This document shows, in pieces, positions 11,626 to 16,220 of a DNA stretch of 64,000 bases. The DNA is from Trichothermofontia sichuanensis B231. GTDB taxonomy: Bacteria > Cyanobacteriota > Cyanobacteriia > B231. The stretch is taken from assembly GCF_026240635.1 (NCBI RefSeq), contig NZ_CP110848.1, forward strand, positions 3,863,741 to 3,927,740. Reading direction: 5' to 3'. Numbering within the stretch: the first letter of the stretch is position 1; each line of letters starts with the position of its first letter. The notes below the pieces were generated by a model that had not been told where the DNA came from, ran no database searches, and was given only the letters and a program-made list of their open reading frames with translations. The translations under genes and the position numbers were made by a program.

Positions 11626-12740
11626 GTTGCGTTGCTCAGGTTAAGACCGCAAAGTTCAAGCTTTTTTCACATTGATAGGTTGGGTCGACCCCAAAGCAGC
11701 CTGACAGGTTTAGTACGTTGGGCTGCGTCACTTTGACATCAACCTACAATTAGGTTATAGGTTAGCTTTGGTACAGTTAATATCTAATAGATTTACAATT
11801 ACAGCCTTTACCTCAATCATAAAGTACAGTTTTACGGCTCTTCTGGGATTTTGGGGTAAACAGTATCAGCAACTACAAATAAACGATCGGAAACGTTGAG
11901 TTTATGGTGGGGGCGCGTAGCGCCCCCACCATAAACTCAGGAGAGCCAGTTTTACAAAGGTAAAATGGCGCAGCCCGTGGGTGTGGCCCTCACCCTAAAT
12001 CCCTCTCCCACTCTGGGAGAGGGACTTGCAAATCCAGCTCCCTCCCCTTGCGGATAGAGGAAGGCAAGGGGACGTTGTTCTCCCAGAGTGGGAGAGGGAC
12101 TTGCAAATCCAGCTCCCCTTCTCCCCACTTGGAAGAAGGGGTGGGGGGATGAGGGCCGCATCTTACCCAACTGAGATGCTCCCCTCGGTTATTCCCAAAA
12201 TGGGTGGGTGGGGGTGTTGCCCGAAACCCTGGGGGGCAGGTTTATGTAGATGCTCGGTTATTCCGAAAATTGGTCGGTAAACCTGCCCCTACGCAATTGA
12301 TGCATCATGTCGAATGGGGTGGGATTATTGATTGGTTGTGTTGGATCGCACAGTGTTTGAGCTAACCTACGGCTACTAATCCTCTTGTAGGGTAGGCGTC
12401 CCGCCTGCCATTTTAATAAAGCTTTGTTTTCCCAGGCTGAAAATTTTTGGGTCATGCTGAAAACTGACAGGCCAGAGGGCCTCATCCCACAAGAAGACTG
12501 ACTGAAAACTTGGTTGGTCGTGCTGAAAACTGACTCTCCAGTCAATAGCCAAGATCCTGGTTTGTAAGCTTAATTATGGTGAATCGGGTGATCGTTCGCC
12601 GAAGCTACTAAAACACCCGATCCGGTTTTATTTTAGGAAGCTGTCGCCAACTTCACTGGAACAGGTCTGGACTCCCTAGGGCACGCCTAAATAATTCCCA
12701 TCATTTAGCTCTGGCAGCAAGGAGTACTCGCGCAAACCAA
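11626..12740. other. Gene-free stretch filled with nested repeats
   Basis: No convincing gene is present. Near 11678-11755 lies a dispersed ATAGGTTGGGTCGA / CATCAACCTACA segment also seen near 38.0-38.2 kb. A family C repeat starts near 11797 (ACAGCCTTTACCTCAATC) and is split by family A copy 1 at 11836-11947. From about 11985 to 12150 come two tandem blocks of GGGAGAGGGACTTGCAAATC type. Between 12160 and 12290 two diverged copies of a TCGGTTATTCC segment occur, and near 12430-12540 a GCTGAAAACTGA motif is repeated. A stem-loop with arms ATCGGGTG (12583-12590) and CACCCGAT (12614-12621), followed by a T-rich run on the plus strand, lies about 120 bp beyond the end of the next gene. Confidence 0.6.
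11836..11947 (+). mobile_element. MITE-like repeat, family A copy 1, with 8-bp target duplication
   Basis: A 112-bp element with termini GGCTCTTCT and (inverted) GGCTCTCCT. It is flanked on both sides by the direct repeat AGTTTTAC (11828-11835 and 11948-11955), a target-site duplication. Inside, positions 11897-11939 form a perfect palindrome with two 20-bp arms around GTA (arms start TGAGTTTATGGTGGGGG). The flanking sequence before and after belongs to a family C repeat, so this copy jumped into an older repeat. It has no coding capacity, so it must have been mobilised in trans. Confidence 0.85.
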
Positions 12741-14222
12741 CTACACAACCAACACCACCTGAAAACCCAGGTAGAAGTAGTAGTCGACTGAAGAGAAGTA
12801 GCCGCGGTACGAAGCACGGCAATTGCCAGTGGACTCGTTACACAAACCACTGCGAATCGGATGAAGAGAAGAATTTCCGCCCTTCGTTAACCGCGTGCCA
12901 TCATTAGGTAGTTCATTTGTATTGTTAGTCCAATTATCGGCACACCACTCCCAGACATGGCCATGCATATCCACCAGCCCCCAGAAATTTTCATGCTCCT
13001 TCGCCTTCTCATACACGGAATGAGTACGCCTTCCTGAATTGCCATCGTACCAGGCGTGTTTACCCAGATCATTATCGCTATTGCCAAACCAGAACTTCGT
13101 CGTTGTCCCCGCCCGACAGGCATACTCCCACTGGGCCTCACTAGGCAAATATACCTTCTGCCCCGCCATCACTGGCTCCTGCGATAGTTTTTTACAAAAC
13201 GCCTTAGCATCATTCCAGGACACCCTTTCTACGGGACAATCCAAATCGCCCTTAAAGTCTGACGGATTATTCCCCATAATCGCCTGATACTGCCGCTGCG
13301 TGATCGGGTACTTACTCATGCGAAACGCTGCCAGGTGAATCTCACGCCCATTCAAATTCAGCGTCCCCTTGCGTATTTCAACAAACTCCAGATCGCCGCC
13401 ATCATTGGGTAGCGTAAAGATCAATTGCCGCCGCCGCTCCGCCGCTTCCTGTTGCTGCCGCAACGCCTCATTAAACGCCGTAATTCGCTCCTGCTGAATC
13501 TGGTGCAAAAACAACGCCAGCGGGCGAATATATTCCGTTTCCAATCCCGTCGGTAACCCCCATTCACCCCCTCCAACTGCGTCACATAGAAGGGATTATC
13601 GCCATCCACCAAGGCATAGAGATCGAGCAAAAATACGGCATAAATCTTTTGCAGCGTTGTCAACCAATCCCCGATCATTTCATACAGATCATCCTCAGCC
13701 AGAGACGCCCCCACTTCCCCCTGCACCTGTTGCGCCAACTCCCGCCACGGCAACTCCACGTCCAAATGGCCCCCCAGCAACTTCGCACTTTGACTACCCC
13801 AGAGTTTGTAATGGAAATAGGCACAACGCCGCGTCACCTTACTAAAGCTCATCACACAGGGCACATTCGGAATAATGCTCTGCAACTGGGCCGCATTCGT
13901 ATCGAAAATATTTTCATCATCAAAAAAGCGGCTATAAAAACGCACCCGCTCCTGAAACACCGAATTGGCAAACTTCTTAATTTGGCTTTCAGCATCCGCC
14001 GCTAACTCCGTCTGAAAATAATCCGGACACCCCGCCGTAATTTGCATCTTGGCACACACAATCACTATTGTTGCTAAGCGCCTCCGCGATCGCGCTATCC
14101 CCACGATGGGGCGTGCTCCCAAACGCTTGCCGTCCCATTAACATCGCCAACGGTTCCGCAAAGTCACCCACAAACTTACTACCAATTTCAAACGCTTTCT
14201 TAGCCAGATCGATCAGCTTCAT
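12741..14222 (-). pseudogene. Broken gene for an FGE/C-type-lectin-fold protein; 3' end resembles a DGR variable region
   Basis: Three adjacent minus-strand reading frames read as one gene of about 490 codons with two frameshifts. The start (14220-14222) encodes MKLIDLAKKAFEIGSKFVGD; the frame shifts near 14060-14075, continues through KKFANSVFQERVRFYSRFFD, and shifts again at a G-run near 13555-13560. The C-terminal 230 residues are a formylglycine-generating-enzyme (SUMF1) domain: FRMSKYPITQRQYQAIMGN, VSWNDAKAFCKKLS, LPSEAQWEYACRAGT, GLVDMHGHVWEWCADNW. The last 30 codons read GNCRASYRGYFSSVDYYFY then LGFQVV, with Y, F, G and D all ending in C (TAC, TTC, GGC, GAC), as if each came from AAC by adenine mutagenesis. 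It follows the DUF29 gene with ends almost touching. The frameshifts could be sequencing errors; if not, the gene is dead. Confidence 0.65.
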
Positions 14223-14726
14223 TGTTCAATCCTCCCAAAGTGTGTACTCAGCCTCAAACACCTCAGCCCAACTCAGCGCCATCACCGTGGGTTGTTTCCC
14301 CATCTCATCCCGCGCATCCTGCTGCGCCGCCAAAAAACATTTTTCCCAAATCGACATCAAAAAATCCCGATTCAGGCTGGGCATCTCCTCCTGACTTGCC
14401 GCAATTTCCCGTCGCGCCGATCGGATCGCAATCACCCAACTGGCCCTGCGTTTATCCGGTTATTCCTGCCACTTAATCACGTGCAACATCAACCGCGTCA
14501 ATTGACTGATACCGCCCGTTTCTCCGATCGCCCCATCGACTCCGCCAAACTGTCCAAAAGGTCATACGCCGCCGTCACCTCTCCCTCCCGAAGCAACTGC
14601 TTCGCCTCCCTCCCGAAGCAACTGCTTCGCCTGTTCAACTGCCAAATAGGGCGACTGAAACACCAAGTCATCCCACGATCGTGCCTCCAATTCCCCCTTA
14701 ACTGGCCCCGCCATAACGTCCGCCAT
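14223..14726 (-). pseudogene. DUF29-family gene, broken
   Basis: Minus-strand coding begins ATG at 14724-14726 (MADVMAGPVKGELEARSWDD) and ends with a TGA at 14226-14228. Pieces in different frames together resemble the cyanobacterial DUF29 family: a MGRSEKRAV motif, a LHVIKWQ segment, RRASWVIAIRSARREIA and a C-terminal EVFEAEYTLWED. At least three lesions are visible: a perfect 25-bp tandem duplication (CTCCCTCCCGAAGC... twice, about 14580-14630), a one-base loss near the MGRSEKRAV segment, and an in-frame TAA where CAA would be expected near 14460. DUF29 proteins have no established function and are often found in mobile or toxin-like neighbourhoods. It sits directly upstream of the broken FGE-domain gene, probably once one operon. 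Confidence 0.7.
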
Positions 14727-14829
14727 CCTACCCTCCCCGCCCGTTGCTTTTATCCACACGGCGATTTCTTATATACTGTCTGTCGTTGACCGCTTATGCT
14801 GTCAATATAGCGCCCCAGTTCCCCCATGC

Positions 14830-15161: not shown

Positions 15162-16220
15162 CTAGAGCGCATTACCGCGCGGTAGCACTTCTTCAGGGAA
15201 GACAAAATGTTCATGGGGTTGGTCTTGGGGAGCCATCCAAGCCCGTAGACCCTCGTTGAGCAGAATGTTCTTGGTGTAGAACGTCTCAAACTCAGGGTCT
15301 TCGGCAGCCCGAATCTCCTGGCTCACAAAGTCATAAGCCCGCAGGTTCAGCGCCAAACCGACAATGCCAACCGCACTCATCCACAGCCCCATCACGGGCA
15401 CGAACAACATGAAAAAGTGCAACCAACGCTTGTTGGAAAAGGCAATCCCGAAAATCTGCGACCAGAAGCGGTTCGCCGTCACCATCGAGTAGGTTTCCTC
15501 CGATTGCGTCGGCGTGAAGGCGCGGAAGGTATTGGCCCCTTCGCCATCTTCAAACAGGGTGTTCTCCACCGTCGCCCCGTGAATTGCACACAGCAGGGCA
15601 CCACCAAGGACACCGGCTACCCCCATCATGTGGAAGGGATTGAGCGTCCAGTTGTGGAACCCTTGCAAAAACAGCAGGAAGCGGAAAATCGCCGCCACGC
15701 CAAAGCTAGGGGCAAAGAACCAACTCGATTGCCCCAGCGGGTACATCAAAAACACGCTTACGAAGACGGCGATCGGGGCCGAAAAGGCGATGGCGTTGTA
15801 GGGGCGCAGACCCACCAGCCGAGCGATTTCAAACTGGCGCAGCATGAAGCCAATCAGCCCGAAGGCCCCGTGCAGCGCCACAAAGGTCCACAGGCCGCCG
15901 AGTTGGCACCAGCGGGTGAAATTGCCCTGGGCTTCCGGTCCCCAGAGGAACAGCAGGGAGTGCCCCAGGCTATCGGGTGGCGTCGAGACGGCCACGGTGA
16001 GGAAATTGCAGCCTTCCAGGTAGGAGGAGGCGAGTCCGTGGGTATACCAGGACGTGACAAAGGTGGTTCCGGTCAGCCAGCCGCCCAGGGCCAAGTAGGC
16101 ACAGGGGAACAGCAGCAGACCTGACCAGCCGACAAAGACGAATCTATCGCGCTTTAGCCAGTCATCGAGAACGTCGAACCATCCCCGACTGGCACTCGCA
16201 CGACCCACTGCAATGGTCAT
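15162..16220 (-). CDS. psbD: Photosystem II reaction centre D2 protein
   Basis: 352 residues, exactly the usual length of D2. All key residues fall at canonical numbers: Tyr160 (redox-active TyrD, in [13 protein letters not shown]), His197 (special-pair chlorophyll ligand, in NPFHMMG), His214 and His268 (non-haem iron ligands, in [10 protein letters not shown] and KRWLHFF). It starts [20 protein letters not shown] and has GGAG 9 bases before the ATG. D2 pairs with D1 to carry the electron-transfer chain of photosystem II in the thylakoid membrane. In the usual psbDC operon psbC overlaps the psbD end; here there is no psbC and a terminator follows at once. It is therefore the stand-alone psbD copy that many cyanobacteria keep as a second, often light-regulated, gene. 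Confidence 0.98.

What the first reader, a model, noticed from the sequence alone, without database searches (positions are those of the whole stretch)
12741..14222. C-terminus of an FGE-fold gene looks diversified by a retroelement (DGR target) with no retroelement in sight
The final codons in frame read GGC AAT TGC CGT GCT TCG TAC, then CGC GGC TAC TTC TCT TCA, then GTC GAC TAC TAC TTC TAC. In related FGE-type proteins these positions are mostly Asn. Here Asn-equivalent sites are Tyr, Phe, Gly and Asp, almost all NNC codons, as expected if AAC codons were changed at adenines. The FGE/C-type-lectin fold is a known scaffold for diversity-generating retroelement (DGR) variable proteins, with the variable region at the extreme 3' end, as here. 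No template repeat or reverse transcriptase is visible in 64 kb, so it would be a remote or orphan target.
Basis: partly seen in the sequence, partly recalled or inferred. Interest (0 to 1): 0.72.

Follow-up and report, generated by a model that had tools for sequence, protein, structure and literature searches.

The report
Fossil target of a lost mutator retroelement
This broken cyanobacterial gene still carries the codon fingerprint left by a diversity-generating retroelement (a system that deliberately scrambles the end of one gene), although the reverse transcriptase and template that made it are not found anywhere in the assembled genome; related cyanobacteria still have the complete system around the same gene.

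Summary
The codons are exactly as described. The assembled genome (one contig, 4.44 Mb) has no reverse transcriptase, no Avd and no adenine-template copy of the variable region. Even so, the DGR reading is right as history. (1) Two-fold Y/F/D/N/H/C codons end in C at 10/12 sites in the last 25 codons, against 8/45 in the rest of the domain (p=5e-5, third strongest of 191 homologues); upstream control segments give chance levels. (2) Over a dozen related loci have FGE variable regions with templates differing only at adenines. (3) Decisively, a Pseudanabaena-group genome has an intact gene of the same architecture in the order DUF29 - variable protein - template - Avd - reverse transcriptase, with 0 non-adenine mismatches in the 66-nt core. 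The window keeps the first two genes, both broken. Best reading: eroded remains of a DGR cassette with a fossil variable region, not an active orphan target. Orphaned variable proteins are already reported in cyanobacteria, so this is a new member of a known kind, with a useful footprint test.

The parts
12741..13559 (-). third surviving reading frame of the broken variable-protein gene: end of the N-terminal region plus FGE/C-type-lectin-fold domain, stop at 12741
   Evidence: PF03781 E=2e-30; aligns to residues 338-642 of the intact G123 homologue
12768..12842 (-). fossil variable region: the 25 codons before GFQVV (CNESTGNCRASYRGYFSSVDYYFYL)
   Evidence: 10 of 12 two-fold NNY codons end in C against 8 of 45 in the rest of the domain, p=4.8e-5; against 23 template-like sequences of relatives, mismatches concentrate at template adenines; no template copy in the genome
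13556..13560 (-). frameshift between second and third frame
   Evidence: frame 2 matches the intact homologue up to residue 339 and frame 3 continues from residue 338
13556..14059 (-). second surviving frame: conserved N-terminal domain (CAKMQITAGCPDYFQTEL...)
   Evidence: 73-74% identical to G037 and G129 proteins and 59% to the G123 variable protein
14059..14064 (-). junction of an out-of-frame deletion of about 105 codons (coiled-coil stretch present in the intact close homologues)
   Evidence: frame 1 ends at homologue residue 58; the real match of frame 2 starts near residue 168
14064..14222 (-). first surviving frame: start of the variable-protein gene
   Evidence: aligns to residues 9-58 of the G123 protein
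14229..14740 (-). broken DUF29-family gene immediately upstream
   Evidence: 55% over 173 aligned positions to the DUF29 gene of the G123 cassette, E=7e-57; its reading frame contains stops; PF01724 for the intact relative
14581..14630 (-). 25-bp perfect tandem duplication inside the DUF29 gene, shifting its frame
   Evidence: direct repeat D3, two 100% copies; frames
11640..12740 (-). place where relatives carry template, Avd and RT: no trace here
   Evidence: tblastn of the G123 Avd and RT against the window gives nothing better than E 0.43; sequence read

Best explanation
The locus is the eroded remains of a cyanobacterial diversity-generating retroelement cassette. An ancestor carried DUF29 gene - variable protein - template repeat - Avd - reverse transcriptase, as a Pseudanabaena-group relative still does. 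The RT copied the template RNA with errors at adenines, and the mutated cDNA replaced the 3' end of the variable-protein gene, turning template AAC codons into NNC codons (shown for relatives by template/variable-region pairs; inferred for this lineage from the footprint). Later the template, Avd and RT were lost (their absence from the assembled chromosome is shown), which froze the variable region; the gene lost about 105 codons and suffered a frameshift, and DUF29 was broken by a 25-bp duplication (shown; the order of events is inferred). What remains is a fossil of the last variant written, kept in a gene that can no longer make its full-length protein.
For: Same gene order: G123 contig 137 carries DUF29, an intact 645-aa variable protein with the same N-terminal domain plus FGE, a template with 0 non-adenine mismatches over the 66-nt core (9 adenine mismatches), a bAvd protein and a DGR-type RT with the motif GLPLGNLTSQ. 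A second relative, G184, has DUF29 - small gene - caspase-like/FGE protein - Avd - RT and a template with 0 non-adenine and 15 adenine mismatches. Codon footprint: 10/12 against 8/45, p=4.8e-5, rank 3 of 191 homologues; 88 of 191 homologues have p<0.05 in the variable region, but only 5 of 192 do in an upstream control segment of the same genes. Intact paralogue L002 in the same genome shows no footprint (3/8 against 13/36). Mismatches to 23 template-like sequences concentrate at template adenines (p from 3e-4 to 0.09, not independent). No RVT_1, Avd or template in the own genome, while the same RVT_1 search finds matches in 108 of 194 relatives. Broken frames.
Against: No RT, template or Avd remnant survives in the window, so the former cassette is inferred from gene order in relatives and from the footprint, not seen. 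The FGE domain itself is closer to proteins of other architectures (up to 53%) than to G123 (39%), so the FGE part may have come by domain shuffling, already diversified. The assembly is one contig and plasmids may be missing. The single-gene footprint rests on 12 codons.
Confidence: 0.84

Rival explanations
1. The gene was a remote target: the variable protein sat apart from the cassette and was diversified in trans by a DGR elsewhere in an ancestral genome, which was then lost.
For: Remote variable proteins with no adjacent RT are documented in cyanobacteria (PMC7517822); many related FGE genes in DGR-bearing genomes lie away from the RT; no RT or Avd trace next to the gene.
Against: The DUF29 - variable protein order matches the complete cassette in G123, which favours a cassette in cis.
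Confidence: 0.11
2. An active orphan target: mutated in trans by a DGR on a replicon missing from the assembly.
For: The assembly is one contig, so plasmids could be missing; FGE genes do occur on cyanobacterial plasmids; the FGE frame of 267 codons is still open.
Against: The gene and its upstream partner are broken, so there is no full-length protein to diversify.
Confidence: 0.02
3. No DGR was ever involved: the C-terminal loop of FGE proteins varies naturally and the NNC codons are chance or local codon bias.
For: FGE C-termini vary in all genomes, including those without RT; 13 of 21 such genes have no significant footprint.
Against: P=0.0018 to 5e-6 in three tests; control segments of the same genes give chance levels; the homologue of the same architecture is a template-matched DGR target.
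Confidence: 0.03

Closest known systems
Cyanobacterial DGRs with C-type-lectin/FGE variable proteins (Vallota-Eastman et al. 2020, PMC7517822; clade 5E in PMC10907252)
   Same: FGE/CLec domain at the C-terminus of a multidomain protein, variable region at the extreme 3' end, NNC codons; variable protein - template - Avd - RT in relatives
   Different: here template, Avd and RT are absent from the assembled genome and both remaining genes are broken
Remnant variable-protein paralogue all3226 (described in PMC7517822)
   Same: variable protein left without an RT or RT pseudogene nearby
   Different: all3226 keeps template homology and lies in a genome studied for its DGR; here the genome has no RT and no template, and the evidence is codon footprint plus gene order
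Complete cassette of G123 contig 137 (Pseudanabaena group, found here)
   Same: DUF29 (55% over the aligned part) followed by a protein with the same N-terminal domain (59%) plus FGE
   Different: intact, with template, bAvd and RT

Membership tests
Diversity-generating retroelement (active system) | DGR-type reverse transcriptase | tested here: not met
   no RVT_1 in the own genome, 0 candidates; the same search rings in 108 of 194 relatives
Diversity-generating retroelement (active system) | template repeat differing from the variable region only at adenines | tested here: not met
   adenine-aware pattern with up to 3 mismatches finds only the gene itself; blastn finds no second copy
Diversity-generating retroelement (active system) | accessory protein Avd | tested here: not met
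   no match in the own genome with the G123 Avd; the same query finds some thirty related loci in a local tblastn
DGR variable protein, by descent | C-type-lectin/FGE fold at the C-terminus | tested here: met
   PF03781 E=2e-30; by sequence, the fold itself was not modelled
DGR variable protein, by descent | variable region at the 3' end with substitutions at first and second codon positions (NNC from AAC) | tested here: met
DGR variable protein, by descent | homologue of the same architecture with a matching template in its genome | tested here: met
   G123: 0 non-adenine, 9 adenine mismatches over 66 nt
DGR variable protein, by descent | intact reading frame | tested here: not met
   three frames, about 105 codons deleted
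DGR variable protein, by descent | variation between strains or cells | not testable with these tools
   no other genome of the same family held; no reads

The most novel reading that the evidence does not exclude
The third-codon-position footprint is a general palaeo-signal of DGR activity: in genomes without any reverse transcriptase, a sizeable share of FGE genes (8 of 21 here at p<0.05, against 0 of 21 in control segments) are fossil variable regions, so DGR loss with retention of the last-written variant would be frequent and traceable in cyanobacteria.
Probability: 0.45. Interest if true: 0.6.

Novelty: new member of a known kind. Interest (0 to 1): 0.42.

Why it matters
DGRs are normally found through their reverse transcriptase and template, so targets that outlive the machinery are missed. 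This locus shows that such a target can be recognised from codon third positions and gene order alone, and gives a worked case of how a DGR cassette decays: machinery gone, variable region frozen, target and partner gene broken. If the footprint holds up in a larger sample, the rate of DGR gain and loss, and whether useful variants are kept after the mutator is gone, become testable from genomes.

Tried and rejected
Active remote target: rejected as the main reading, because no RT, Avd or template is in the assembly and the gene is broken. Looking for a decayed template, Avd or RT in the 1.1 kb downstream: nothing. Searching plasmids with the N-terminal region, read through its deletion, gave no match. 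Plasmid FGE relatives exist, but the best listed is 47% identical. My first footprint count used a regular expression that over-extended some regions; it was redone with a fixed 25-codon segment and an internal control. Strain comparison was not possible: no genome of the same family is held, and the class-wide DNA search gave, for the DUF29 and N-terminal parts, only relatives of up to 77% identity. Literature searches found no paper linking DUF29 with DGRs, and the search for decayed DGRs returned only irrelevant papers; the library is open-access only.

Full report
What is there. The window lies in a cyanobacterial chromosome (psbD-like gene at 15162-16220, recognised by eye; one contig, 4,436,989 bases, 99.76% complete). 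The domain that ends at 12741 is an FGE-sulfatase domain (PF03781, E=2e-30). The stretch 12741-14222 is not one gene in one frame. Frame 1 runs from the ATG at 14222 and matches an intact relative to residue 58; frame 2 carries the conserved N-terminal domain from about 14059 to 13556; frame 3 carries the FGE domain. The intact close homologues have a coiled-coil-like stretch of about 105 residues between the first two pieces that is missing here. A deletion of that size cannot be a base-calling error. The DUF29 gene just upstream is broken as well: it contains a perfect 25-bp tandem duplication and in-frame stops.

Is a DGR present now? No, as far as the assembly shows. The RVT_1 model finds nothing in the genome, not even a first-look candidate, while it finds matches in 108 of 194 relatives. 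A pattern that lets every non-adenine base of the variable region be either itself or an adenine (what a template must look like), with up to three mismatches, finds only the gene itself in 4.4 Mb. Ordinary blastn finds no second copy. The Avd protein of a relative finds nothing in the genome, though the same query finds some thirty related loci. The method works: in more than a dozen loci of related genomes the same kind of scan finds templates with zero non-adenine mismatches to FGE variable regions, whose coding reads NNNPRNCRSAYRNNNNP..RNNN.GFRVV.

Was a DGR active in the past? Template AAC codons mutated at adenines leave NNC codons. In the window, 9 of the 11 codons after CGC end in C (P=0.0018 under the codon usage of the window's genes; 39 of 15,651 sliding segments are as extreme). 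In the rest of the gene Tyr, Phe, Asp and Asn codons mostly end in T. Using a fixed definition (the last 25 codons before GF, two-fold NNY codons only) on 191 distinct homologues, the window scores 10 of 12 against 8 of 45 (p=4.8e-5) and ranks third. Across homologues, 88 of 191 variable regions have p<0.05, but only 5 of 192 upstream control segments of the same genes do. Locus classes behave as expected: template-adjacent loci 0.69 C against 0.42 in the rest of the gene, viral contigs 0.82 against 0.46, genomes without RT 0.55 against 0.33. An intact FGE paralogue of the same genome (L002) has no footprint. Aligned to 23 template-like sequences from relatives, the window's mismatches concentrate at template adenines in every case (p from 3e-4 to 0.09; these are not independent).

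The decisive comparison. The N-terminal domain of the broken gene occurs in intact proteins of 547-843 residues. The closest ones (G037, G129, G075, G123) come from one genus, g23, to which G157 also belongs; G157 appears to be Pseudanabaena galeata CCNP1313, because the match on a contig of 151,263 bases is at the same place. These proteins have exchangeable C-termini: FGE, GUN4 or TPR (Pfam matches) and WD40-like repeats in more distant ones (read by eye). One of them, on G123 contig 137, has the same N-terminal domain plus FGE, and it sits in a complete DGR cassette: DUF29, variable protein, template, bAvd (PF22296), RT with the DGR-type motif GLPLGNLTSQ (that this motif marks DGR RTs is from general knowledge). 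Template and variable region differ at 9 positions over the 66-nt core, all adenines in the template. Among the loci then held, the DUF29 query matched only G123 and the window; a wider search found it also in front of a second complete cassette, in G184, whose template has 0 non-adenine and 15 adenine mismatches. DUF29 is not DGR-specific: in other genomes it stands next to unrelated genes. The window therefore keeps the first two genes of a DGR cassette in order, both broken, and nothing of the last three elements.

How it most likely worked and died. Shown: the present anatomy, the absence of the machinery from the assembly, the footprint, and the living cassette in a relative. Inferred: that the ancestor of this locus carried the cassette in cis, that its RT wrote this variable region, and that loss of the machinery came before the breakage. 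A remote target diversified in trans by a cassette elsewhere that was later lost is the main rival and differs only in where the machinery stood. Function of the intact proteins is not tested here; published work proposes signal transduction, cell death or antigen sensing in conflict systems (PMC7517822, PMC10907252).

Known or new. Cyanobacterial DGRs with such targets are known. The same survey reports remote variable proteins and one paralogue (all3226) with remnant template homology and no RT nearby, and suggests that diversification components may be removed once a good variant is selected. This locus is a new, more advanced case of that kind. What may be of wider use is the footprint: 8 of 21 FGE genes in RT-less genomes show it, against none in control segments, but the sample is small and not corrected for kinship.

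Noticed in passing
own genome G000:C1:3219922-3220631 (L251): A second FGE gene of this genome is also split between two frames and ends in a variable-region-like segment (WNGNADNFASGNRGNWGAGVRDDDQGFRVV; NNC 7 of 10 against 10 of 25, p=0.11): possibly a second fossil target.
   Followed up: partly
L321 (G192:C1:5444700-5445900): In a genome without RVT_1 match, an FGE gene has an almost all-Asn variable region (WNNNPRNCRSANRNRNLPDNRNNNNGFRVV), like an unmutated template.
   Followed up: no
L291/L339 (G123 contig 137) and L360 (G184): A DUF29 subfamily stands upstream of two complete DGR cassettes with different variable proteins (caspase-like/FGE in G184); no paper in the library links DUF29 and DGRs.
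   Followed up: partly
L288, L289, L290, L292, L294, L282-L286: An N-terminal domain without Pfam match is combined with exchangeable C-termini (FGE, GUN4, TPR, WD40-like), suggesting a modular sensor family.
   Followed up: partly
L157 and L197 (viral contigs): Viral contigs carry FGE variable regions with template copies differing only at adenines nearby, and viral FGE genes show the strongest NNC footprint (0.82 against 0.46).
   Followed up: no
window 11897-11939 and 12004-12117: Downstream of the broken gene lie a perfect 20-bp inverted repeat with a 3-bp loop and a pair of 39-bp direct repeats (92%); they look like small interspersed repeats.
   Followed up: no
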